NCBI RefSeq assembly: GCF_004121055.1
Contig: NZ_PYAL01000001.1
Span: 1,054,001 to 1,118,000 of the forward strand
From: Achromobacter aloeverae
GTDB lineage: Bacteria; Pseudomonadota; Gammaproteobacteria; Burkholderiales; Burkholderiaceae_B
Length of the DNA stretch: 64,000 nt
Direction of reading: 5' to 3'
The notes under the pieces were generated by a model. That model worked only from the letters and a program-made list of their open reading frames with translations, was not told where the DNA came from and searched no databases. The position numbers and the translations under genes are program-made. Below are positions 33,734-45,153 of the stretch, in pieces; the stretch's first letter is position 1, and every line of letters begins with the position of its first letter.

Positions 33734-34066
33734 TCAGTGGCTGATCATCCAGGGCCGGCTATTGGCGAAGGTCTTGCCGCCATCCGCCGTCTTGCGGGTC
33801 TTGCCGGGCAGCTTGCCGCCCCCGCAGCAGCCGCAATTCATGCCGTGACCGCCCCGCGAGCTGCGCGGCTCGTGCGCGTTGCGCTCGTTCATGGCGTGCG
33901 CCCGGTTCACCGCCGACGACAAGGCGCCCAGCGCGGGCGCGCCGCCAATGATGCGCGGCGCGTCTCCCCCGCACTCCGGGCAGGCGGCGGGGTCGCGCCA
34001 TGCCGCCAGCGGACGCATGACCGAGAACTCCCCGCAGACGGGGCAGCTGTAATCGTATAGAGGCAT
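33734..34066 (-). CDS. fmdB: FmdB-family zinc-ribbon regulatory protein
   Basis: A 110-residue protein starting MPLYDYSCPVCGEFSVMRPL with a second CPECGG pair, the CxxC...CxxC zinc ribbon of FmdB, a presumed regulator of formamidase expression in Methylophilus. A second Cys-rich stretch (MNCGCCGGGKLPGKT) lies near residues 76-90. An AAGGAGA ribosome site precedes the ATG, 19 bases after the fmdA stop. It is the last gene of the urt-fmd operon. Function beyond metal binding has not been shown for the family. Confidence 0.9.
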   Translation of the reverse strand: MPLYDYSCPVCGEFSVMRPLAAWRDPAACPECGGDAPRIIGGAPALGALSSAVNRAHAMNERNAHEPRSSRGGHGMNCGCCGGGKLPGKTRKTADGGKTFANSRPWMISH

Positions 34067-34085
34067 GACGGCTTCTCCTTGCGAC

Positions 34086-35315
34086 CTACAGGTCCGGCGA
34101 CAAGGGCATGTCGACGCCCCCGCTGACGGCCTTGACCGGTCCGCTGGCCGAAGGCTGGATATCGAAATCGAAGATTTCGGTCGGCAACCACAGCGTGGCG
34201 CACGCATTGGGAATGTCCACCACGCCGCTGATGTGCCCCTGCACGGGCGCCGTGCCCAGGATGGAATAGGCCTGCGCGCCGGAATAGCCAAACTTCTTCA
34301 GGTACTCGATGGCATTGAGGCAGGCTTGACGATACGCGATGTGCACGTCGAGATAGTGCTGGCTACCCTTTTCATCAACCGAAATACCTTCGAAGATCAG
34401 GTAATCCTTGTAATTCGGCGTAATGGGACTGGGCTTGAAGATGGGGTTGCGGATGGCGTATTTCTCCATGCCGCCCTTGATCAGGTTGACCCGCATATGG
34501 ATCCAGCCGGCCATCTCGATGGCGCCGCAGAACGTGATCTCGCCATCGCCTTGCGAGAAATGCAGGTCGCCCACCGACAGGCCGCCGCCCTTCACGTAGA
34601 CCGGGAAGAAGACGCGCGAACCGCGCGACAGGTCCTTGATGTCGCAATTGCCGCCATGTTCGCGCGGCGGCACCGTGCGCGCGCCTTCGGACGCCGCCTT
34701 GTCGCGGGCGGCGCCGGACAGCTTGCCCATGTGCGCCGTCTTGGGCGCGGGCGGATTGGCCAGCGGCGGCACGCGGTTGGGGTTGGTATCGATCAGCGCC
34801 TGTTCGCGCCTGTTCCAGGTATCGAGCATCGCCTGGTCGGGCAGGCAGCCGATCAGCCCGGGGTGGATCAAGCCGGCGAAGTTCACGCCCGGGATATGGC
34901 GCGAACTGGTGTACATGCCGTGGAAATCCCAGATGGATTTCTGCGCCTGGGGAAAGTGCTCGGTCAGGAAGCCGCCGCCGTTCTTCTTGCTGAAGAAGCC
35001 GTTGAACCCCCACAGGCTGTCCGGCTTGGCGCCGATGTCGAGGAAGTCCACCACCAGCAGGTCGCCCGGCTCGGCGCCTTCGACACCCACGGGGCCGGAC
35101 AGGAAGTGCACCGTCGACAGGTCGACGTCGCGCACGTCGTCGGCGCTGTCGTCGTTCTTGATGGCGCCGCCGGTCCAATCGTAGGTTTCCAGCACGAAGT
35201 CATCGCCCGGCTTGACCCAGACGGCGATGGGAATGTCCGGATGCCAACGGTTATGGATGTTCTCGTTTTCGTAGGGTGACTGGGCCAGGTCGACTTTGAT
35301 CAGGGTATCGGGCAT
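34086..35315 (-). CDS. fmdA: formamidase / short-chain amidase
   Basis: A 409-residue acetamidase/formamidase-family enzyme hydrolysing formamide (and sometimes acetamide or propionamide) to the acid and ammonia. Landmarks are HNRWHPDIPIAVWVKPGD, HFLSGPVGVEGAEPGDLLVVDFLDIG, EHGGNCDIKDLSRGSRVFFPVYVKGGGLSVGDLHFSQGDGEI and CGAIEMAG. AAAGGAGC precedes the ATG. Position directly after urtE matches the fmd cluster of Methylophilus, where the amidase and an amide/urea importer are co-expressed for nitrogen supply. Product ammonia would enter glutamine synthesis. Confidence 0.95.
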   Translation of the reverse strand: MPDTLIKVDLAQSPYENENIHNRWHPDIPIAVWVKPGDDFVLETYDWTGGAIKNDDSADDVRDVDLSTVHFLSGPVGVEGAEPGDLLVVDFLDIGAKPDSLWGFNGFFSKKNGGGFLTEHFPQAQKSIWDFHGMYTSSRHIPGVNFAGLIHPGLIGCLPDQAMLDTWNRREQALIDTNPNRVPPLANPPAPKTAHMGKLSGAARDKAASEGARTVPPREHGGNCDIKDLSRGSRVFFPVYVKGGGLSVGDLHFSQGDGEITFCGAIEMAGWIHMRVNLIKGGMEKYAIRNPIFKPSPITPNYKDYLIFEGISVDEKGSQHYLDVHIAYRQACLNAIEYLKKFGYSGAQAYSILGTAPVQGHISGVVDIPNACATLWLPTEIFDFDIQPSASGPVKAVSGGVDMPLSPDL

Positions 35316-35381
35316 GACTTGCTCCTTTGGTGGATGAAGCGATTGGAACGGAACGGCGGCGGCCGGGGCGGTTCGCCGCGG

Positions 35382-36074
35382 CTACACGGACAGGTAGCGG
35401 CTGATGGTCTGCTCGTCCACCTCGTCGCGCTTGTTCTCGTGCACGAAGCGTCCCTTGTCGATGACGATCAGGCGGTCGGCGATCTGCATGGTGAAACTGA
35501 GCACCTGCTCGGACACGACGATGGCCAGGTCCTTGAGCTTGCGGATTTCCAGCAGCGTGCGGGCGATGTCCTTGATGATGGACGGCTGTATGCCTTCGGT
35601 GGGCTCGTCCAGCATCAGCACCTTGGGCTGCGTGACCAGGGCGCGGGCGATGGCCAGTTGCTGCTGCTGGCCGCCGGACAGGTCGCCGCCGCGCCGCCGC
35701 CGCATCTCGTGCAGCACCGGGAACAGCGCGTAGATGTCCTCGGGCACCGGATCGCGCAAGGCGCTGCCGCGTAGTCCGGTGCGGATGTTCTCCTCCACCG
35801 TCAGCGTGGGAAAGATCATGCGCCCCTGCGGCACGTAGGCCACGCCCGCGCGCACCCGCTGGAAGCTTTCCATCCGGCTGATGTCGCGGCCGTCGACCTC
35901 CACCTTGCCGCCCATGGCGGGCAGCACGCCCATCAGGGTCTTGAACAAGGTGGTCTTGCCCATGCCGTTGCGGCCCATCACGGCCACGATTTCGCCCTTG
36001 GCGACATCGAGGTCCACGCCGTGGATCACACGGCTCTGGCCATACCCGGATTGCAGTCCCGATACGGTGAACAT
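35382..36074 (-). CDS. urtE: urea/short-chain amide ABC transporter ATP-binding subunit
   Basis: A 230-residue branched-chain-type ABC ATPase (LivF group). Walker A is AVMGRNGMGKTTLFKT, the signature LSGGQQQQLAIARAL, and Walker B LMLDEPTEGIQPSII. It teams with UrtD to energise the UrtBC permeases. It is separated from urtD by 98 bases that contain two strong GC hairpins, so it may be translated from a processed or attenuated mRNA. Subunit naming follows gene order and family similarity: UrtE is very close to LivF/FmdF. Confidence 0.93.
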   Translation of the reverse strand: MFTVSGLQSGYGQSRVIHGVDLDVAKGEIVAVMGRNGMGKTTLFKTLMGVLPAMGGKVEVDGRDISRMESFQRVRAGVAYVPQGRMIFPTLTVEENIRTGLRGSALRDPVPEDIYALFPVLHEMRRRRGGDLSGGQQQQLAIARALVTQPKVLMLDEPTEGIQPSIIKDIARTLLEIRKLKDLAIVVSEQVLSFTMQIADRLIVIDKGRFVHENKRDEVDEQTISRYLSV

Positions 36075-36092
36075 GGCTTTTCTCCTGGAGCA

Positions 36093-36161
36093 CGGGGCCA
36101 CGGCCCCGGTTCGATGGGTACGGCGTCGATGACCGGGCGCGGCGTTCGAGGCCGCGCCCGG
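36093..36161 (-). promoter_or_regulatory. two GC-rich hairpins between urtD and urtE
   Basis: CGGGGCC (36093-36099) pairs with GGCCCCG (36102-36108). CCGGGCGCGGC (36133-36143) pairs perfectly with GCCGCGCCCGG (36151-36161) across a 7-base loop. The larger one sits 11 bases after the urtD stop. Such structures inside an operon can end, pause or protect transcripts and so set urtE and fmdAB levels relative to urtABCD. Confidence 0.5.
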
Positions 36162-36172
36162 CCGGCGCCGCT

Positions 36173-36942
<770 letters not shown>

Positions 36943-36946
<4 letters not shown>

Positions 36947-38124
36947 GCGGCCTCCGTATTGCCGGCAGCGGATTGGGCGGGAGCGGCGGGACTTGCCGGG
37001 TCGGCGGCCGCGGGACTGCCTGCCCGGGCCGCCACGGCGCTGCCCCGGCGCGCCAGGCGCGGCTTGACGTACTGCGCGTAGAGGCCTGCCAGGCCATTGG
37101 GGAAGGCCATCACCACCGCGATGAAGAGGCCGCCCATCAGGAACAGCCACAGCTGGGGGAAGCTTTCCGAAAAATAGCTCTTGCCGAAATTCACCAGCAG
37201 GGTGCCGTAGACCGCGCCCAGCAGCGACAGCCGGCCGCCCACCGCGGCGAAGATCACCATCTCGATCGAGGGCACGATGCCCACGAAGGACGGCGACATG
37301 AAACCGACCTGCAGCGTGAACATGGCGCCGCCGATGGCGGAGAACACGGCCGCCACGCAGAATACGAATACCTTGAAGCTGGACACGTCATAGCCGGAGA
37401 AGCGCACCCGCTCCTCCTTGTCGCGCATCGCCATCAGCAGCTTGCCCAGCTTGGAGGACAGCAGGAAGCGGCCGAACAGCAGGCAGGCGAACAACAGCGC
37501 GGCATTGACGAAGTACAGGATCACGCGCGCCGAGTCGCTGCGGATGTCCCAGCCGAGCAGCGTGCGCAGGTCCGTGATGCCGTTGACGCCGCCGGTGTAC
37601 CCCTGCTGGCCGATGATCAACACCGACAGGATCAGGGCCACGGCCTGGGTCACGATGGCGAAATAGGTGTCGCCCACGCGCCGCTTGAACATGGCCACGC
37701 CCAGCACCAGGGCCAGCAGCGCCGGCACGATGGGCACCGCGAACAAGGTGAAGATGAAGCTCTTGAACGGCACCCAGAACCACGGCAACGCCGTGATCTG
37801 GTTCCAGTCCATGAAATCCGGTATGCCGGGCGTGGACTGGATCTTGGTGGCTTCCACGCTGGACGCCTCCAGCTTGAGGAACATGGCCATGCAGTAGCCG
37901 CCCAGGCCGAAGAACACGCCCTGCCCCAGGCTGAGTATGCCGCCATAGCCCCAGCACAGCACCAGCCCGAGGGCGACGAAAGCGTAGGTCAGGTACTTGC
38001 CGACCAGGTTCAGCCTGAAGCTGTCCAGCAGCAGCGGGAAGAGGACGAAGATCAGCGCCGCGAGGATGGCGATGCCGATGAGGCCCTCGCGTCCGCCCAG
38101 GACATTCTTGTATAGGGTTTTCAC
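36943..38124 (-). CDS. urtC: urea/short-chain amide ABC transporter permease
   Basis: A 393-residue inner-membrane permease of the LivM/UrtC type with about ten helices. It contains the segment MFLKLEASSVEATKIQSTPGIPDFMDWN, a loop characteristic of UrtC, and the C-terminal KLGKLLMAMRDKEERVRFSGYDV coupling region. It starts at a GTG (38124) with GGAGTAGGA directly upstream; an open frame extends further but antisense to urtB. The last 40 residues are Ala/Pro-rich and probably disordered. It pairs with UrtB. Confidence 0.94.
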
Positions 38125-38141
38125 GTTCCTACTCCCGCCGC

Positions 38142-39059
38142 CTACTTGCGGACCTTGATCGAGAACAACCCTTGCGGGCGCAGCATCAGGATGATGACCA
38201 CCGCGGACAGGGTCAGCACCTTCGCCATGGAACCGGTCAGGAAGAATTCCGACACGGATTGGGTCTGGGCGATGACGAAGGCCGACGCGATGGTGCCGTA
38301 CAGGCTCGCGGCGCCGCCAAACACCACCGTCAGGAAGGTATCGACGATGTACAGCGATCCGCTGGTGGGCCCGGTCGATCCGATGGTGGTGAACGCCGCG
38401 CCCGCGATGCCGGCGATGCCGCAGCCCAGCGCGAAGGTCACGCGGTCGACCCGCTTGGTATCGATCCCCACCGAGCCGCTCATGACGCGGTTCTGCACCG
38501 TGGCGCGCACATGCAGGCCCCAGGTCGACCGGAACAGGGCCAGCAGCAGGCCGCAGGTGAGGATCACGGTAATGACCATCACCGTCAGGCCGTTGACGGG
38601 AATATCGACGCCCGGCAGCGGCTGCACCGAACCCATCAGCCACTCCGGCAGCGTCGGGCTGACTTCGCGCGGGCCGAAGATCGAGCGCAGCGCCTGCTGC
38701 ATCACCAGCGACAGCCCCCAGGTCGCCAGCAGGGTGTCCAGCGGCCGGCGGTACAGGTGGCGGATCAATACCCACTCCACCAGCCAGCCCAGCGCGAAGG
38801 TGACGGCGAAGGCCGCGGCGATGGCGACGAAGAAGTAATAAGGCATGAGCGACGGCAGGTACTGCTGCGTCAGCTCCGAGAACAGGTAGGTGGTATAGGC
38901 GCCGACGGCGAGGAACTCGCCATGTGCCATGTTGATCACCCCCATCTGGCCGAAAATGATGGCCAGGCCCAGGGCCATGAGCAACAGGACGCTGAAGACG
39001 GACAGGCCATTGAAGCCCTGCATCAGCAGGATGGCGCCGAGGTCTGAGAAGGATTCCAT
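38142..39059 (-). CDS. urtB: urea/short-chain amide ABC transporter permease
   Basis: A 305-residue LivH/UrtB permease with about eight membrane helices. GLAIIFGQMGVINMAHGEFLAVGAYT is the conserved N-terminal family motif, and TQSVSEFFLTGSMAKVLTLSAVVIILMLRPQGLFS the C-terminal one. ATG start at 39059. The gap from the urtA stop (178 bases) contains a small hairpin (GACCCG-ACG-CGGGTC, 39123-39137), which may help keep the binding protein at higher level than the membrane parts. Confidence 0.94.
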   Translation of the reverse strand: MESFSDLGAILLMQGFNGLSVFSVLLLMALGLAIIFGQMGVINMAHGEFLAVGAYTTYLFSELTQQYLPSLMPYYFFVAIAAAFAVTFALGWLVEWVLIRHLYRRPLDTLLATWGLSLVMQQALRSIFGPREVSPTLPEWLMGSVQPLPGVDIPVNGLTVMVITVILTCGLLLALFRSTWGLHVRATVQNRVMSGSVGIDTKRVDRVTFALGCGIAGIAGAAFTTIGSTGPTSGSLYIVDTFLTVVFGGAASLYGTIASAFVIAQTQSVSEFFLTGSMAKVLTLSAVVIILMLRPQGLFSIKVRK

Positions 39060-39237
39060 GGCAGGCCCTCAGGTTGGATGAATGCTTGCGTCGGGGAGAT
39101 CGGCGCTGCCCTTGCCGCCGTGGACCCGACGCGGGTCGACCGTGTGGCGACGACGTCGCAACGCCCTCGCCGCGGGACGCTGCGCGCGGCCCGCCACGGG
39201 ATACTCGTCCCCCGGGCAGGCGGCGCGCGGCGCCTGC

Positions 39238-40500
39238 TTACTGGTATCCCTTGGGGAAGGGATCCGGCTTGATCAGGTCCTTGGTTTCGAAGACCACGTC
39301 GAATTGCCCGTCCTTGCGGATCTGTCCCACGCGGGTGCGGCTCCACAAGTGGTGGTTGGGATCGACCTTCACGTAGCCCTCGGGCGCTTCCTTGAACTCC
39401 TGGCCCGGCGCCGCCGCCACGACCTTGTCGACGTCGAAGCTGCCGGCCTTCTCGACCGCCATCTTCCACAGCCACGGCCCCAGGTAGGCGGCCTGCGTCA
39501 CGTCGCCGATCACGGCGTTGGGACCGTACTTGGCCTTGAAGGCGGCGACGAACTTCTTGTTGTTCGGGTTGTCCAGGCTCTGGAAGTACTTCATGCAGGA
39601 ATAGAAGCCCTCGGCGTTCTCGCCGCCGATGCCCAGCAGCTCGTCCTCGGTGACGGACAGCGTCAGCAGCTTCTGCTTGTCCGCCGTAACGCCCGCGGCC
39701 TTCAACTGCTTGTAGAAGGACACGTTGCTGCCGCCCACCACGTCGGCGAACACCACGTCCGGCTTTTTCAGCTTGATCTTGTTGATCAGCGAGCCGAACT
39801 GCGTGTGGCCCAGCGGGTAATACTCTTCTCCCACCACCTCGCCCTTGAGCACGTTCTCGATGTGCTTGCGCGCGATCTTGTTCGACGTGCGCGGCCAGAT
39901 GTAGTCGGACCCGACCAGGTAGAAGGTCTTGGCTTTCTTTTCCTCGTGCAGCCAGTTCAGGCTGGCGAGGATCTGCTGGGTGGCTTCCTGGCCGGTGTAG
40001 AACACGTTCTTGGACTGCTCCAGCCCTTCATAGAACGTCGGGTAGTACAGCAGGCCGTTTTCCTTTTCGAAGACCGGCAGCACCGCCTTGCGCGAAGCCG
40101 ACGTCCAGCAGCCAAACACGGTGGCGACCTTGTCGCTCACCAGCAGCTTGCGCGCCTTCTCGGCGAACGTCGGCCAGTCGGACGCGCCGTCTTCCTGGAT
40201 GATCTTGATCTGGCGGCCCAGGATGCCGCCGGCGGCGTTGATCTGCTCGATCGCCAGGCGCTCGGCCTGGATCGAACCGGTCTCGCTGATGGCCATGGTG
40301 CCGGTGGCCGAATGCAACTGGCCGACGGTCACTTCGGTGTCGGTAACGGCCAGCCCCGTCGTATTGACGGCCGCCGTGGCCGGGCCGGCGGCGCGGCTGA
40401 AGGCGGGAATGCCCAGCAGCGGCAGCGACGCCAGCGCCAGGGTGGCGCGGCGACGCGCGGGCGACGCGAGTTCGTTGGGATAACGGGGGTTGCGAGACAT
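39238..40500 (-). CDS. urtA: urea/short-chain amide ABC transporter substrate-binding protein
   Basis: A 420-residue periplasmic binding protein of the UrtA/AmiC-FmdD type. A twin-Arg-like signal (SPARRRATLALASLPLLGIPAFSRAAG) precedes the mature start. Family features are VGQLHSATGTMAISETGSIQAERLAIEQINAAGGILGR, VFGCWTSASRKAVLPVFE and LLYYPTFYEGLEQSKNVFYTG, the ligand-binding region for urea or amides. ATG at 40500. It leads the operon urtABCDE-fmdAB, and because fmdA follows rather than ureases, short-chain amides may be the main cargo. The divergent transporter-kinase gene shares the 248-bp promoter region. Confidence 0.95.
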   Translation of the reverse strand: MSRNPRYPNELASPARRRATLALASLPLLGIPAFSRAAGPATAAVNTTGLAVTDTEVTVGQLHSATGTMAISETGSIQAERLAIEQINAAGGILGRQIKIIQEDGASDWPTFAEKARKLLVSDKVATVFGCWTSASRKAVLPVFEKENGLLYYPTFYEGLEQSKNVFYTGQEATQQILASLNWLHEEKKAKTFYLVGSDYIWPRTSNKIARKHIENVLKGEVVGEEYYPLGHTQFGSLINKIKLKKPDVVFADVVGGSNVSFYKQLKAAGVTADKQKLLTLSVTEDELLGIGGENAEGFYSCMKYFQSLDNPNNKKFVAAFKAKYGPNAVIGDVTQAAYLGPWLWKMAVEKAGSFDVDKVVAAAPGQEFKEAPEGYVKVDPNHHLWSRTRVGQIRKDGQFDVVFETKDLIKPDPFPKGYQ

Positions 40501-40588
40501 CGAACGCTCCTTGCGGATGAGACGCTTTAGGGGAAACCCGATGTCGCGGCGATGCTGGAATATGCGCCACGCCCGGGGGTTCGATGCC

Positions 40589-40615
40589 ATACTAGGAACG
40601 CATGACGCAGCGCAA
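40589..40615 (-). promoter_or_regulatory. candidate urtA promoter
   Basis: On the minus strand TTGCGC (40610-40615) and TAGTAT (40589-40594) are separated by 15 bases, a short spacer that would need activation. The proximal dyad at 40616-40634 touches the -35 element, the place for a class II-type activator. Confidence 0.35.
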
Positions 40616-40684
40616 CATACGTTGATTGACGTAGTGGCTACCCAGCCTCCCAGGAAGTACAAAGCCGGCATACGTCAATCGACG
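40616..40684. promoter_or_regulatory. paired regulator-binding dyads between urtA and the transporter-kinase gene
   Basis: CATACGTTGATTGACG (40616-40631) and CATACGTCAATCGACG (40669-40684) are 13/16 identical as direct repeats, and each contains a CGTY-N4-GACG dyad. They are 53 bp apart, about five helical turns, so proteins bound to both would face the same side. One abuts the urtA -35 and the other precedes the divergent kinase gene. The natural candidate binder is the LuxR-type regulator encoded at 44155. Confidence 0.6.
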
Positions 40685-40748
40685 CATACATGGACGCGTC
40701 GGTCGGACGCGACGTGGTTACATAAACACAACAAGGGGACGCGAAAGC

Positions 40749-43700
40749 GTGGACGCAAGCGCAACACAACGCATCGTCAAGATCCGCCGCGACTACAACA
40801 CCTGGGTCGCCAACGAGACCCTGGAAGACTACGCGCTGCGCTTCACGCCGCTGTCCTTCCGCAAGTGGTCCGAATTCCGGGTCGCCAACACCGCCGTGGG
40901 CGCCGTGTCCTTCCTGGCGCTGGAGGCCATCGGCGGCGCGCTGGCCTTGAACTACGGCTTCATCAACGCCTTCTGGTCCATCATGGCGGTGTCGGTGCTG
41001 ATCTTCCTGACGGGGCTGCCCATCGCCTACTACGCCGCCCGCCACGGCCTGGACATGGACCTGCTCACGCGCGGCGCCGGCTTCGGCTACATCGGATCGA
41101 CCATCACGTCCCTGATCTACGCGTCCTTTACCTTCATTTTCTTCGCGCTCGAAGCGGCCATCATGGCGCTGGCGTTGGAATTGTGCACGGGCTTGCCGCT
41201 ATCGCTGGGGTACCTGGTGTGCGCGGTGGCCATCATTCCCTTCGTCACCTATGGCATCACGCTGGTCAACCGCCTGCAGGCGTGGACGCAACCCGTCTGG
41301 CTGGTGCTGCTGGCGCTGCCTTACGTCTTCATCCTGGCCAAGGATCCCGGCGCGCTTGGCGGCCTGTTCGACTATGCCGGGCGCAACGGCAACGGTGGCC
41401 ACTTCGACCTGCTGATGTTCGGCGCCGGCGTGGCCGTCGGCGCGGCGCTGATCACGCAAATCGGCGAACAGGTCGATTTCCTGCGCTTCCTGCCCGCCAG
41501 GACGGCGGCCAACCGCCGGCGCTGGTGGCTGGCCTTGCTGTGCGCCGGGCCGGGCTGGATCATTCCCGGCGCGGCCAAGATGCTGGCCGGCGCCTTCCTG
41601 GCCTACCTGGCGCTGGGCCATGGCGTGCCCGCCGCCAAGGCGGCCGACCCGACCAAGATGTACCTGGTGGCCTTCCGCTACGTCTTCGACCATCCGGCGT
41701 GGGCGCTGGGCGCGATGACGCTGTTCGTGGTGGTGTCGCAGGTGAAGATCAACGTCACCAACGCCTATGCCGGCTCGCTGGCCTGGTCCAACTTCTTCGC
41801 CCGCATCACCCACAGCCACCCCGGCCGCGTCGTGTGGCTGGTGTTCAACGTGCTGATCGCCATTGGCCTGATGGAGATGGGCGTGTTCGATGCGCTCGAA
41901 CACGTGCTGGCCATCTTCGCGCACGTGGCCATCGCGTGGATAGGCTCGCTGGTGGCGGACCTGGTGGTCAACAAGCCGCTGGGCCTGAGTCCGCGCGGCA
42001 TCGAGTTCCGGCGCGCCTATCTGTATGACATCAATCCGGTGGGCGTGGGCAGCATGCTGCTGGCGCTGGTCCTGTCGCTGGTGGCCTATGCCGGCGCCTT
42101 CGGCGCGGTGGCCCAGGCCCTGTCGCCCTTCATCGCCTTGCTGGCGGCATTCGTCACCGCGCCGGCGATCGCCCGCGCCACGCGCGGCCGCTACTACCTG
42201 GCGCGCCAGCCGCACGACCTGTCCGGCGCCGCGGCCGGCCCGGACGCGCCCGCGACGCCATACGGCCTGCGCTGCGTCATCTGCTCCAACCTGTTCGAAG
42301 CGCAGGACATGGCGCAATGCCCTGCCTACAACGGCGCCATCTGCTCCCTGTGCTGCACGCTCGATGCCCGCTGCCAGGACCGCTGCAAGACCGGGTCGCG
42401 CCTGCAGGACCAGTTCGGCTCGGCGCTGCGCCGCATCCTGCCCGGCGCGGCGACGCCGCTGTTCCACACCCGGCTGGCGCACTACCTGGTCGTGATCGGC
42501 ATGATAGGCGGACTGCTGGCCGCCATCCTGGCGCTGATCTACTACCAGGAAGCGGTCACGTTCGCGCAGGTGGGCGCCGACACCTCGGCCTTGCGCGCGA
42601 CCTTCCTGAAGCTGTTCGCCGCGCTGCTGCTGATCGGCGGCGTGGCCGCATGGTGGCTGGTGCTGACGAACGAAAGCCGCCAGGTGGCGCAGGAAGAGTC
42701 CGACCGCCAGACCAACCTGCTGCTCAGGGAAATCGAGGCCCACCGCCAGACCGACGCCCAGCTGCAGAAGGCCAAGGAAGCCGCCGAAGCCGCCAACCTG
42801 GCCAAGAGCCGCTTCATGGGCGGCATGAGCCATGAACTGCGCGCGCCGCTGAACAGCATCCTGGGCTATGCGCAGATCCTGCAACGCGACGCCGCCATGC
42901 CCGCCGGCAGGCGCGAGGCCATCGATGTCATCCATCGCAGCGGCAAGCATCTGCTCGGCCTGATCGACGGCCTGCTCGACATCGCCCGCATCGAAGCCGG
43001 CAAGCTGCGCCTGGAAACCGCCGACCTGCGCCTGCCGGAATTCCTCGACCAGATCGTCAAGATGTTCCAGCCGCAAACCGCGCTCAAGGGGCTGGCCTTC
43101 CACTACGAGGCCGCGCCCAACCTGCCCAAGATCGTCCATATCGACGAGAAGCGCCTGCGACAGATCCTCATCAACCTGTTGAGCAACGCCGTCAAGTTCA
43201 CCCGCGCCGGACACGTGGCGCTGCGCGTGCGCTATGCGTCCAACATGGTGCAGATGGAAGTCGAGGACAGCGGCGCCGGCATACCGGCGCCGGACCTGGA
43301 GCGCATCTTCATGCCCTTCGAACGCAGCTGGGCGGCGACCGAGCAGGCCGACACCGGGACCGGCCTGGGCCTGACCATCTGCCGCATGCTGACCGGCATC
43401 ATGGGCGGCGAACTGACCGTACGCAGCGTGTTGGGCCAGGGCAGCGCCTTCACCCTCAAGCTGTTCCTGCCGGAAGTGCGTTCGCCGCGCAGCGACCTGC
43501 GGCCCGGCGGCACGGTGGTCGGCTACGCGGGAGAACGGCTGGGCGTGCTGATCGTCGACGACCAGCCCTCGCAGCGCCGCATCCTGCGCGACATGCTGGA
43601 GCCGCTGGGCTTCACCATCCACGAGGCGGGCAATGGCCAGGACTGCCTGGCGCGGGTGCACACCTTGCGGCCGGCGCTGATCCTGATGGACATCTCCATG

Positions 43701-44174
43701 CCGGGCATGCCGGGTTCGGAAGTGTGCCGGGTGCTGCGCGACCAGGGCGTGGGCGTGCCGGTCATCATCGTGTCGGCCCATGCCCATGGCCTGGACCCCA
43801 AGGAAGCGGTGCAATCGGGACTGACCGACTGGCTGGTCAAGCCGGTCAACCTGGACGACCTGCTCCACAAGATCGGCCAGCATCTGAAGCTGGCGTGGGT
43901 GACGCAGGCCCCACCGCCCGAACCCGAGGCGCCGGACGAGGCGCGCCTGCGCACGGTGGCGCTGGACCGCGAGGACGCCGAGTCCTTGCTGGAGCTGGGC
44001 GCCATGGGCTATATCAAGGGCATATTCGCGCGCCTGGACGAGATCCGCGCGCGCGCCCCGCATACCGCGCCGCTGATCGACCATCTGGCGCTGCTGGCCA
44101 AGGATTTCCGGCTGGCCGAATACAACACGCTATTGAAGGAATACGTACAGCACCATGCCGCAAGCCTCCGATAA
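40749..44174 (+). CDS. NCS1-type transporter / cysteine-rich module / hybrid histidine kinase-receiver
   Basis: A 1141-residue membrane protein. Residues 30-480 are an NCS1 (nucleobase/allantoin/hydantoin) transporter with about 12 helices (LALNYGFINAFWSIMAVSVLIFLTGLPIAYYAARHGLDMDLLTRGAGFGYIGS). Residues 507-547 hold eight cysteines (509, 512, 524, 532, 535, 536, 542, 546). Two further helices follow (about 570-595 and 625-645). The kinase core has His695 (GGMSHELRAPLNSILG), the N-box LINLLSNAVKF, and GTGLGLTICRML. A receiver with Asp981 (LILMDISMPG) and a helical tail complete it. The GTG at 40749 has AAGGGG upstream. Divergent from urt-fmd and overlapping the LuxR regulator, it is probably a sensor for urea, amide or a nucleobase breakdown product. 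Confidence 0.93.
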   Translation: MDASATQRIVKIRRDYNTWVANETLEDYALRFTPLSFRKWSEFRVANTAVGAVSFLALEAIGGALALNYGFINAFWSIMAVSVLIFLTGLPIAYYAARHGLDMDLLTRGAGFGYIGSTITSLIYASFTFIFFALEAAIMALALELCTGLPLSLGYLVCAVAIIPFVTYGITLVNRLQAWTQPVWLVLLALPYVFILAKDPGALGGLFDYAGRNGNGGHFDLLMFGAGVAVGAALITQIGEQVDFLRFLPARTAANRRRWWLALLCAGPGWIIPGAAKMLAGAFLAYLALGHGVPAAKAADPTKMYLVAFRYVFDHPAWALGAMTLFVVVSQVKINVTNAYAGSLAWSNFFARITHSHPGRVVWLVFNVLIAIGLMEMGVFDALEHVLAIFAHVAIAWIGSLVADLVVNKPLGLSPRGIEFRRAYLYDINPVGVGSMLLALVLSLVAYAGAFGAVAQALSPFIALLAAFVTAPAIARATRGRYYLARQPHDLSGAAAGPDAPATPYGLRCVICSNLFEAQDMAQCPAYNGAICSLCCTLDARCQDRCKTGSRLQDQFGSALRRILPGAATPLFHTRLAHYLVVIGMIGGLLAAILALIYYQEAVTFAQVGADTSALRATFLKLFAALLLIGGVAAWWLVLTNESRQVAQEESDRQTNLLLREIEAHRQTDAQLQKAKEAAEAANLAKSRFMGGMSHELRAPLNSILGYAQILQRDAAMPAGRREAIDVIHRSGKHLLGLIDGLLDIARIEAGKLRLETADLRLPEFLDQIVKMFQPQTALKGLAFHYEAAPNLPKIVHIDEKRLRQILINLLSNAVKFTRAGHVALRVRYASNMVQMEVEDSGAGIPAPDLERIFMPFERSWAATEQADTGTGLGLTICRMLTGIMGGELTVRSVLGQGSAFTLKLFLPEVRSPRSDLRPGGTVVGYAGERLGVLIVDDQPSQRRILRDMLEPLGFTIHEAGNGQDCLARVHTLRPALILMDISMPGMPGSEVCRVLRDQGVGVPVIIVSAHAHGLDPKEAVQSGLTDWLVKPVNLDDLLHKIGQHLKLAWVTQAPPPEPEAPDEARLRTVALDREDAESLLELGAMGYIKGIFARLDEIRARAPHTAPLIDHLALLAKDFRLAEYNTLLKEYVQHHAASLR

Positions 44175-45153
44175 CAAACTGGTGATGCTGGTCGACGATA
44201 CGCCCGACAACCTGAAGATGCTGTCGGACGCGCTGGACGAGGCCGGCTACATGGTCGTCGTCGCCACGGACGGGGCGTCGGCCGTGGAACGCCTGGATTT
44301 CGTGCTGCCGGACATCGTGCTGATGGACGCCGTCATGCCCGTGATGGACGGCTTCGAGGCCTGCCGCCGCATCAAGGCCCATCCCGCCGCGAGCCACGTG
44401 CCGGTGGTCTTCATGACGGGACTGACCGAACCCGAGCACGTGGTGCGCGGCTTCCAGGCCGGCGGCATCGATTATGTGACCAAGCCCATCGACACGGACG
44501 TGGTGCTGGCGCGGCTGGACGCCCACCTGCGCAATGCCCGCATGATGTCCGTGGCCATGAATGCCATGGACGCGGTCGCCAACGCGGTGGTGGTGCTGGA
44601 CGCGCAAGGCCAGGTGACGTGGAAGACCAGCAAGGCGCGCTTGTGGCTGAGCGAGTATTTCGGTCATCCGGAAGACACGGCCGGCCTGGCGCCGGCACTG
44701 GCCACCTGGATCGCCCAGCAGCTGGAGCGCCCGCAAGCCCAGGAGGCGGCGGTGTTCACCATCGCCGCGCCCGAAGGCGGCGCCAGGTCAGGCAGGGCAA
44801 GCGGAACGGAAGCCAGGGAGACCGAGGCTGGCGCCGCCGGCCGGCGCGAACTGCGCCTGCGGCTGACTGCCTCGCGCAAGGCGGGTGAGTATGTGCTGTT
44901 GATGGACGAGCGCGCGCTGCCGGCCGATGCCGCCGATACCTTGGCGGCCGCCTACCAGTTGACCACGCGCGAGCGCGAGGTGCTGCTGTGGCTGGCCAAG
45001 GGCAAGACCAATCGCGACATCGGCGAGATCCTGGGCATGGCGCCGCGCACCGTCAACAAGCACCTGGAACACGTCTACGTGAAACTGGGCGTGGAGACGC
45101 GGGCGGCCGCCACGGCGCTGGTGCTGACGCATATGCACAAGGGGGCCGCGTAG
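44155..45153 (+). CDS. response regulator, receiver plus LuxR-type DNA-binding domain
   Basis: A 332-residue regulator. The receiver (residues 1-125) has VDD and phospho-acceptor Asp58 (IVLMDAVMPVMDG), Thr and Lys (VTKPID). The middle (130-255) resembles a PAS-like domain interrupted by an Ala/Gly/Glu-rich loop. The C-terminus is a LuxR/FixJ helix-turn-helix (LTTREREVLLWLAKGKTNRDIGEILGMAPRTVNKHLEHVYVKLGV). Its gene overlaps the transporter-kinase gene by 20 bases, so the two are translated together and should form a phosphorelay. The likely targets are the paired dyads between that kinase and urtA. Confidence 0.93.
   Translation: MPQASDNKLVMLVDDTPDNLKMLSDALDEAGYMVVVATDGASAVERLDFVLPDIVLMDAVMPVMDGFEACRRIKAHPAASHVPVVFMTGLTEPEHVVRGFQAGGIDYVTKPIDTDVVLARLDAHLRNARMMSVAMNAMDAVANAVVVLDAQGQVTWKTSKARLWLSEYFGHPEDTAGLAPALATWIAQQLERPQAQEAAVFTIAAPEGGARSGRASGTEARETEAGAAGRRELRLRLTASRKAGEYVLLMDERALPADAADTLAAAYQLTTREREVLLWLAKGKTNRDIGEILGMAPRTVNKHLEHVYVKLGVETRAAATALVLTHMHKGAA

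What the first reader, a model, noticed from the sequence alone, without database searches (positions are those of the whole stretch)
33734..45153. A transporter-kinase transceptor divergent from a complete amide uptake and hydrolysis operon
Seen: urtABCDE-fmdA-fmdB on the minus strand, and divergently a 1141-residue protein in which a full NCS1-type transporter is joined to a hybrid histidine kinase, overlapped by a LuxR regulator gene. Known: Methylophilus fmd genes couple an amide/urea importer to formamidase, and transporter-kinase fusions such as CbrA (SLC5 type) act as nutrient sensors. Inferred: the NCS1 domain reports amide, urea or a nucleobase product and drives urt-fmd through the LuxR regulator. 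I know of no described NCS1-kinase amide sensor, so this could be a new control circuit.
Basis: partly seen in the sequence, partly recalled or inferred. Interest (0 to 1): 0.75.

Follow-up and report, generated by a model that had tools for sequence, protein, structure and literature searches.

The report
Transporter-kinase sensor for amides and urea
A bacterial sensor made of a membrane transporter fused to a signalling kinase sits beside, and probably switches on, the genes for taking up and breaking down urea and small amides, and the same sensor is found next to such genes in many other bacteria.

Summary
In detail: fmdB-fmdA-urtEDCBA (-) lie divergent from a 1141-aa transporter-kinase (TK, 40749-44174) whose end overlaps a LuxR-type regulator gene. 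The sensor fails Pfam's NCS1 model, but an intermediate sequence and the predicted fold (CodB Z 32.9, Mhp1 29.3) make it NCS1-like. New: an eight-cysteine module (140 of 140 rows) and a two-helix hairpin link transporter and kinase.

The linkage is conserved. In a phylum sample, 54 of 56 TK loci lie beside urt, fmdA/amidase or urease genes; the other two sit at contig ends. All 38 genomes with a close UrtA also have TK. A 7-2-7 palindrome, TACGTCA-N2-TGACGTA, lies twice in the window's divergent promoter region; all 97 sites (up to two mismatches) in 141 loci precede TK, urt, fmdA or amidase units. None of 20 sampled genomes without TK has it upstream of urt.

Best reading: an NCS1-type transceptor kinase senses urea/short-chain amides and, through the regulator, induces their uptake and hydrolysis genes. 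Ligand, phosphotransfer and DNA binding are untested; urease-only loci mostly lack the palindrome. A new variant of the transporter-kinase kind; no description found in the papers searched.

The parts
33734..34066 (-). fmdB, FmdB-type zinc-ribbon protein (110 aa)
   Evidence: TIGR02605 and NF053663 above cut-off; start set at MPLYDYSC
34086..35315 (-). fmdA, formamidase (409 aa)
   Evidence: NF045496 777 bits, PF03069 617 bits
35382..36074 (-). urtE, ABC ATPase
   Evidence: TIGR03410 336 bits
36173..36946 (-). urtD, ABC ATPase
   Evidence: TIGR03411 380 bits
36943..38124 (-). urtC, permease
   Evidence: TIGR03408 441 bits
38142..39059 (-). urtB, permease
   Evidence: TIGR03409 399 bits
39238..40500 (-). 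urtA, urea/short-chain amide binding protein
   Evidence: TIGR03407 545 bits; start set at MSRNPRY
40501..40748 (.). divergent promoter region urtA / TK
40618..40633 (.). palindrome copy 1, TACGTTGATTGACGTA (2 mismatches), proposed regulator site
40671..40686 (.). palindrome copy 2, TACGTCAATCGACGCA (2 mismatches), proposed regulator site
40749..44174 (+). TK, NCS1-like transporter fused to hybrid histidine kinase (1141 aa)
40824..42206 (+). TK residues about 26-486: NCS1-like transporter domain
   Evidence: CodB Z 32.9, 398 residues; Mhp1 Z 29.3
42261..42392 (+). TK residues 505-548: eight-cysteine module
   Evidence: C509 C512 C524 C532 C535 C536 C542 C546 in 140 of 140 rows
42471..42668 (+). 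TK residues about 575-640: predicted transmembrane hairpin
   Evidence: helices 575-607 and 613-679; hydrophobic segments read from the sequence
42801..43001 (+). HisKA, H695
   Evidence: PF00512; H695 in 140 of 140 rows
43143..43469 (+). HATPase_c
   Evidence: PF02518
43545..43874 (+). internal receiver, D981
   Evidence: PF00072; D981 in 138 of 140 rows, the two others (L184, L194) have a gap there
44155..45153 (+). LuxR/NarL-type response regulator (332 aa): REC, PAS-like middle, HTH
   Evidence: PF00072, PF00196; model

Best explanation
TK is a transceptor-type histidine kinase. Its NCS1-like membrane domain binds urea and/or short-chain amides (inferred). Binding changes the domain's conformation; the cysteine module and hairpin pass that change to the kinase (inferred). 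H695 is phosphorylated and the phosphate reaches the neighbouring LuxR/NarL-type regulator (pairing shown by linkage, transfer inferred). The regulator dimer binds the 7-2-7 palindrome TACGTCA-N2-TGACGTA between urtA and TK (site shown by conservation, binding inferred) and activates the urtABCDE-fmdAB operon and probably its own genes. In relatives the same module serves urt-amidase, urt alone, or urease operons, and where fmdA or the amidase gene forms a separate unit it can have its own palindrome.
For: Linkage: phylum sample, 54 of 56 TK loci beside urt, fmdA/amidase or ureC, the other two at contig ends; nearest-relative set, 73 of 80. LuxR-type regulator in the same locus in 54 of 56 and 73 of 80; the seven misses of the second set have 852 bases or less downstream. 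Co-occurrence: 38 of 38 genomes with a class-1 UrtA (69% or more) carry TK, among 398. Different enzymes replace each other next to the same sensor: FmdA, AmiE/AmiF-type amidase, urease. Palindrome: up to 2 mismatches in 51 of 72 urtA-TK intergenic regions, shuffles mean 0.07, max 2 (the motif was found on this set). Outside the discovery set, 22 of 57 urease/urt2 loci have it. Of all 97 sites in 141 loci (2.73 Mb), 80 lie within 500 bases upstream of TK and/or urtA, 7 directly before an ORF that precedes urtA2 (five of them 11 kb from TK), 7 lie 73-123 bases before fmdA, 2 before amiE, 1 before a displaced urtC. Upstream of urt2: 16 of 31 loci with TK against 0 of 20 in genomes without TK. 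Own genome: 5 sites within 2 mismatches, two of them here. Fold: NCS1 proteins are the best matches. The 7-2-7 layout is that of NarL sites (PMC4549865, passages). M. methylotrophus fmd genes are induced by formamide and urea (PMC10781810, passages).
Against: No ligand, transport, phosphotransfer, DNA-binding or expression data. No site within 4 mismatches in 7 of 72 intergenic regions, and only 1 of 15 loci with ureC and no urt has one within 2 mismatches, so urease control may use another site or none. Five of 80 nearest-relative loci are unlinked despite about 10 kb upstream (L057, L066, L071, L073, L084; L073 has only 1.2 kb downstream). TK is patchy even near home: 18 of 151 genomes of the family and 4 of the 6 listed for the own genus have it. 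The reversed control pattern gives more chance hits in the own genome (9) than the motif (5) at 2 mismatches. No HPt domain was found, so the route of phosphate from a hybrid kinase to the regulator is open. The NCS1 substrates that I recall are nucleobases, hydantoins and the like, not urea.
Confidence: 0.7

Rival explanations
1. TK controls the operon, but its membrane domain senses something else: a nucleobase or ureide, cyanate, ammonium or general nitrogen status.
For: The NCS1 fold is that of nucleobase and hydantoin carriers. The M. methylotrophus fmd genes are also repressed by ammonia (PMC10781810, passages). In Dechloromonas a kinase-receiver pair of fitting size lies among urt, cynS and nif genes (PMC2907700, passages).
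Against: The neighbours are urea/amide uptake and hydrolysis genes in 54 of 56 loci, with interchangeable enzymes.
Confidence: 0.15
2. TK does not bind the nutrient itself but reads the state of the UrtABCDE importer or of liganded UrtA (trigger transport), its NCS1 domain being a structural relic.
For: Every sampled genome with a class-1 UrtA has TK (38 of 38).
Against: TK stands next to ureC with no urt seen in 15 of 136 sampled loci, 11 of them with 8 kb or more upstream, and next to fmdA with no urt in the stretch read (L184, L194; plasmid locus L201); urt may lie elsewhere in those genomes. The NCS1 domain keeps many invariant polar residues.
Confidence: 0.07
3. The eight-cysteine module is the true input: it senses metal (for instance nickel for urease, zinc for amidases) or redox state, and the NCS1 domain only anchors it.
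For: All eight Cys invariant in 140 of 140 rows. FmdB in the operon is also a zinc-ribbon protein. The module occurs as a tail of kinase-free NCS1-like proteins too (L019; degenerate in L020).
Against: Its presence on kinase-free transporters argues for a structural role with the NCS1 domain. AmiE and AmiF, whose relatives stand next to some copies, hold no metal ions in H. pylori (PMC10781810, passages).
Confidence: 0.06
4. Linkage without regulation: TK and its regulator act on unrelated genes.
For: No expression data exist; five of 80 nearest-relative loci are unlinked.
Against: Palindromes stand before urt units 11 kb from TK and before separate fmdA and amiE units, and none was found upstream of urt2 in 20 genomes without TK.
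Confidence: 0.02

Closest known systems
SLC5-STAC sensor kinases CbrA, CrbS, RpuS
   Same: Transporter-type membrane domain fused to a histidine kinase, used as nutrient sensor; CbrA is called a transceptor (PMC13022988, passages; CrbS and RpuS from the search listing)
   Different: SLC5 domain and cytoplasmic STAC domain there; here NCS1-like domain, eight-Cys module and a predicted membrane hairpin. Different nutrients (histidine for CbrA; acetate use for CrbS, a pyruvate symporter for RpuS).
Amt-type ammonium sensor kinase of Kuenenia (Ks-Amt5; name recalled)
   Same: Nitrogen transporter domain fused to a kinase (PMC5764959, search listing)
   Different: Amt fold and ammonium; no Amt family among the TK matches at E<=1
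NCS1 carriers CodB and Mhp1
   Same: Best fold matches of the sensor
   Different: No kinase, no Cys module; 16-18% identity in the structural alignment; substrates cytosine and hydantoins
Methylophilus methylotrophus fmdCABDEF
   Different: In the passages seen only a putative positive regulator within the cluster is named; no sensor kinase
AmiC/AmiR amidase control
   Same: Controls an amidase operon by its ligand (PMC13209695, passages)
   Different: AmiC ligand sensor plus antiterminator AmiR, not a membrane kinase
NarL
   Same: REC-HTH regulator; 7-2-7 palindromic sites (PMC4549865, passages)
   Different: Half-site TACGTCA here; an extra domain between REC and HTH

Membership tests
NCS1 transporter family | Direct match to Pfam PF02133 | tested here: not met
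   No match at E<=1; 0 matches in the own genome. I therefore call the domain NCS1-like, not an NCS1 member by Pfam's definition
NCS1 transporter family | Homology to an accepted member | tested here: met
   L196 ORF, 29% identical to TK over 479 columns, E 6e-42, matches PF02133 with 36.4 bits, cut-off 23.5. hhalign of A1 with CodB is weak alone: E 3.5e-4, probability 37
NCS1 transporter family | NCS1-type LeuT fold | tested here: met
   The five best Foldseek rows are Mhp1 and CodB. CodB Z 32.9 over 398 residues, 3.3 A; Mhp1 29.3, 28.0, 25.9; next family AgcS 25.5, tied with the lowest Mhp1 row
NCS1 transporter family | Transport of a substrate | not testable with these tools
   needs uptake assay
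SLC5-STAC sensor kinases | SLC5/SSF domain | tested here: not met
   No SSF match at E<=1; NCS1 structures score above SLC5 ones
SLC5-STAC sensor kinases | STAC four-helix domain between transporter and kinase | tested here: inconclusive
   Model shows a strand-rich Cys module, then helices 552-563, 566-573, 575-607, 613-679; no STAC model was searched as such
Hybrid histidine kinase | HisKA, HATPase_c, REC with phospho-acceptor His and Asp | tested here: met
   H695 140 of 140, D981 138 of 140
NarL/LuxR-type response regulator | REC plus GerE HTH | tested here: met
   PF00072 94 bits, PF00196 61 bits; D58 invariant in the 52-row alignment
NarL/LuxR-type response regulator | Binds a 7-2-7 palindrome | tested here: inconclusive
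   Conserved palindrome present; binding not tested
Urea/amide ABC importer UrtABCDE with formamidase | Curated family scores | tested here: met

The most novel reading that the evidence does not exclude
A whole, undescribed class of bacterial sensors: NCS1-family receptors fused to kinases that have become dedicated detectors of urea and short-chain amides, with an invariant eight-cysteine (probably metal-binding) relay taking the place of STAC, spread over Alpha-, Beta- and Gammaproteobacteria and onto conjugative plasmids, and feeding a NarL-type regulator with its own 7-2-7 code. It would be the first transporter-derived urea/amide receptor in bacteria that I know of, and the missing inducer sensor of the fmd genes.
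Probability: 0.45. Interest if true: 0.8.

Novelty: new variant of a known kind. Interest (0 to 1): 0.68.

Why it matters
Induction of the amide/urea operon by formamide and urea has been reported since 1998 without, in the passages seen, a named sensor (PMC10781810). This gives a defined sensor, regulator and DNA site, each testable. It adds NCS1 to the transporter folds turned into receptors, next to SLC5 and Amt, with a different coupling module. The same pair sits on a pKPN3-307 Klebsiella plasmid whose urea transporter is discussed as a urinary-tract trait (PMC5506382, PMC13060141, passages) while the sensor beside it is annotated only 'ATP-binding protein'.

Tried and rejected
Direct sequence searches for the membrane domain failed: no PF02133 match, and the only PDB match of profile A1 at E<=10 was a chance zinc-finger match at E 3.8. 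hhalign with CodB was weak. DUF7942 (E 1e-4, below its cut-off) was set aside as a short low-scoring match. A strict sigma-54 site was rejected as the shared promoter signal: 4 of 72 regions. A sigma-70 scan of window 40400-40850 found 0 sites. A Pfam scan of three copies of the ORF before urtA2 that carries the palindrome found nothing, so its identity as an FmdC-like porin is only a guess. The regulator's middle was not matched to a known fold: the list was filled by receiver domains; PAS-like is read from the strand/helix order. Na+ and substrate positions were compared with CodB by alignment, with CodB residue roles recalled; nothing firm came of it. DUR3, a urea carrier of the same broad fold, appears lower in the fold lists; that shows only that a LeuT-type fold can hold urea. 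Literature: ten searches of the open PMC subset listed no paper whose title or abstract start describes an NCS1-kinase or a sensor for urt-fmd; listings were capped and most subscription papers are not held. PMC6286996 (passages) had nothing on this.

Rows left out before counts: L196 (29% identity, no kinase) from the 57 fetched phylum regions; G386 (contig-end fragment) not fetched; the short loci L001-L030 and L111-L139 from the linkage counts; two rows (L069, L097, under 800 aa) from the conservation count; no row from the tree. In one search several nearest-relative loci (for example L048, L051, L053, L054, L064) end near urtA2, so their upstream sequence is short and counts against the motif.
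Full report
OBSERVATION. The window holds fmdB, fmdA, urtE, urtD, urtC, urtB, urtA on the minus strand (33734-40500) and, divergently after 248 bases, a 1141-codon gene with GTG start (TK, 40749-44174) whose end overlaps by 20 bases a regulator gene (44155-45153). The operon genes pass NCBIfam's curated cut-offs. TK passes Pfam's for HisKA, HATPase_c and Response_reg, the regulator for Response_reg and GerE.

IS IT NCS1? Pfam's NCS1 model does not match TK and a 77-row profile of the sensor module finds no solved relative by sequence. But a kinase-free protein in another genome (L196) is 29% identical over 479 columns and itself passes PF02133 (36.4 bits, cut-off 23.5). The predicted structure of residues 1-680 (pTM 0.83, mean pLDDT 82) aligns best to NCS1 structures: the five best Foldseek rows are Mhp1 and CodB; CodB Z 32.9 (398 residues, 3.3 A), Mhp1 29.3, 28.0 and 25.9; the next family (AgcS) has 25.5, so the lowest Mhp1 row is tied with it. 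I call it NCS1-like and derived.

WHAT LINKS TRANSPORTER AND KINASE. Residues 505-548 hold eight cysteines (C509, C512, C524, C532, C535, C536, C542, C546), invariant in 140 of 140 rows. Then come two long helices with hydrophobic cores (575-607, 613-679), read as a membrane hairpin, then HisKA. A kinase-free NCS1-like protein (L019) carries the same Cys tail and L020 a degenerate one, so the module goes with the transporter, not with the kinase. H695 is invariant (140 of 140) and D981 is present in 138 of 140; the two others, L184 and L194, have a gap there.

LINKAGE. I used two sets. Set B: TK matches at 52-71% identity in 398 Pseudomonadota genomes drawn evenly, fetched with about 8 kb upstream and 11 kb downstream where the contig allowed, 56 loci after leaving out L196. 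In set B 54 of 56 lie beside urt, fmdA/amidase or ureC (U1+FmdA+amidase 18, U1+FmdA 17, U2 7, U2+ureC 5, ureC 4, fmdA 2, U1+ureC 1); the two misses sit at contig ends. In set A 73 of 80; of the seven misses, five (L057, L066, L071, L073, L084) have about 10 kb upstream and are unlinked within it (L073 has only 1.2 kb downstream) and two are shorter. Here U1 is the UrtA type of the window (69% or more identical) and U2 a second type (39-45% identical in these loci). The LuxR-type regulator is present in 54 of 56 and 73 of 80; the seven misses of set A have 852 bases or less downstream. The two misses of set B are informative: L184 and L194 keep the sensor module beside fmdA but have a plain kinase, followed by a gene for a REC-HisKA-HATPase protein, and a further gene that reads by eye as a receiver protein stands divergent from fmdA. 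Within the own family, 18 of 151 genomes have TK at 55% identity or more; in their short stretches 15 of 18 show urtA, one fmdA, two neither (L017, L018). Two of the six listed genomes of the own genus lack TK.

CO-OCCURRENCE. Of the 398 genomes, 53 carry TK (two as partial copies), 168 a UrtA relative at E<=1e-60, and 38 a U1 UrtA. All 38 have TK (Fisher p 3e-41, without correction for shared ancestry; the own genome, source of both queries, is one of them). Of 130 genomes with other UrtA relatives only, 14 have TK.

ENZYMES CHANGE, SENSOR STAYS. Next to the same sensor stand FmdA, AmiE/AmiF-type amidases, or urease. On pKPN3-307 of Klebsiella pneumoniae the order is formamidase-urtEDCBA, divergent TK, with the regulator found by tblastn; that formamidase is a 335-aa protein unlike FmdA and is called AmiF in the literature (PMC5506382, passages). 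Of 482 plasmid records with a TK match, 332 are Klebsiella. On Burkholderia vietnamiensis pBVIE02 amidase, FmdB, FmdA, urt, TK and regulator follow one another; Rhizobium and Shinella plasmids have urt alone; Methylovirgula has fmdBA beside TK. A tree of 142 sensor modules needs 7 changes between amide-type and urea-type neighbourhoods; one clade of 48 rows holds no amidase-linked copy (urease 25, urt2 only 16, unlinked 7) (quick tree, several long branches).

THE PALINDROME. Words shared by 72 urtA-TK intergenic regions point to TACGTCA (54 of 72; highest 7-mer count in 20 shuffles 30) arranged as TACGTCA-N2-TGACGTA. At up to 2 mismatches it is in 51 of 72 (30 shuffles: mean 0.07, max 2), at up to 4 in 65 of 72 (mean 4, max 8). 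These are the discovery set. Split by source at 2 mismatches: set B 18 of 35, set A 30 of 34, plus the window and two plasmid loci. Outside it, 22 of 57 urease/urt2 loci have a site: ureC without urt 1 of 15, U1+ureC 3 of 6, U2+ureC 2 of 9, U2 16 of 27; and 0 of 9 loci without a linked operon (counted from the list). Of all 97 sites in 141 loci (2.73 Mb), 80 lie within 500 bases upstream of TK and/or urtA. Seven lie 28-96 bases upstream of an ORF directly before urtA2, five of them 11 kb from TK. The remaining ten lie 73-155 bases before fmdA (seven loci), amiE (two) or a displaced urtC (one), that is, before second transcription units of the same pathway. Upstream of urt2 the site is in 16 of 31 loci with TK and 0 of 20 in genomes without TK (Fisher p 4e-5; within set B 6 of 10, p 4e-4). 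The 20 were chosen by hand from the capped listing. The perfect site is in 7 of 53 TK genomes and 2 of 345 others; six of the seven are in the urtA-TK gap and the seventh (G292) is about 12 kb from TK, 3.5 kb before a visible urtC; the two others (G390, G492) are not among the 168 genomes with a UrtA relative. In the own 6.5 Mb genome 5 sites within 2 mismatches exist, two of them here; the reversed control pattern has 9. The 7-2-7 layout is that of NarL sites (PMC4549865, passages).

REGULATOR. The model (mean pLDDT 87) shows REC, a middle domain with strand-strand-helix-helix-three-strand order that I read as PAS-like, and an all-helical HTH part. The fold list covered only the receiver.

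HOW IT PROBABLY WORKS. Shown: architecture, pairing, linkage, co-occurrence, site conservation. Inferred: urea or short-chain amide binds the NCS1-like domain; the signal passes through Cys module and hairpin; H695 is phosphorylated; phosphate reaches the regulator, directly or through another protein, since no HPt domain was found; the dimer binds the two palindromes 53 bases apart and activates transcription both ways. [quoted passage not shown]

AGAINST. Urease-only loci mostly lack the site. Seven U1 loci lack it even at 4 mismatches. Some TKs are unlinked and TK is patchy within its own genus. Nothing is measured.

NOVELTY. Transporter-kinase fusions are known (SLC5-STAC: PMC13022988, passages; Amt: PMC5764959, listing). 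Earlier genome papers list what are probably members without comment, not checked by sequence here: Dechloromonas aromatica, histidine kinase 1131 aa and receiver 308 aa beside UrtA (PMC2907700, passages); Ectopseudomonas G3, a LuxR regulator pair beside a urt operon that adjoins fmdA, and a hybrid kinase in its urea-gene figure legend (PMC13296017, passages). Ten searches of the open PMC subset showed no description of its nature or role. I file it as a new variant of a known kind.

Noticed in passing
L184:7003-11525, L194:6874-11570: Variant relay beside fmdA: same NCS1-Cys sensor with a plain kinase, a neighbouring REC-HisKA-HATPase gene, and a further receiver-type gene (judged by eye) divergent from fmdA, instead of the LuxR-type regulator.
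   Followed up: partly
L019:1396-3069, L020:1348-3051: Kinase-free NCS1-like proteins ending in the same cysteine module (degenerate in L020).
   Followed up: partly
L074:20232-21350, L102:19870-20991, L092:14987-16123: An ORF of about 370 aa lies between the palindrome and urtA2 in several loci; three copies scanned (L074, L102, L109) had no Pfam match. Possibly an FmdC-like outer-membrane channel.
   Followed up: partly
L197 (pKPN3-307 plasmid): TK of the Klebsiella plasmid urea cluster is annotated only as 'ATP-binding protein'; the regulator is absent from the PLSDB gene table, and insertion sequences flank the region.
   Followed up: partly
L012:1369-3234: In genome G011 the TK reading frame stops after 622 codons with kinase homology beyond it; the gene looks broken or split.
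   Followed up: no
L207, L208: Two genomes without TK or a listed UrtA relative (G492, G390) carry one perfect palindrome each; chance or another NarL-type regulator.
   Followed up: no
L196:8350-11566: An NCS1 protein at 29% identity to TK sits next to a long protein that reads as a double nitrilase-type amidohydrolase (judged by eye).
   Followed up: no
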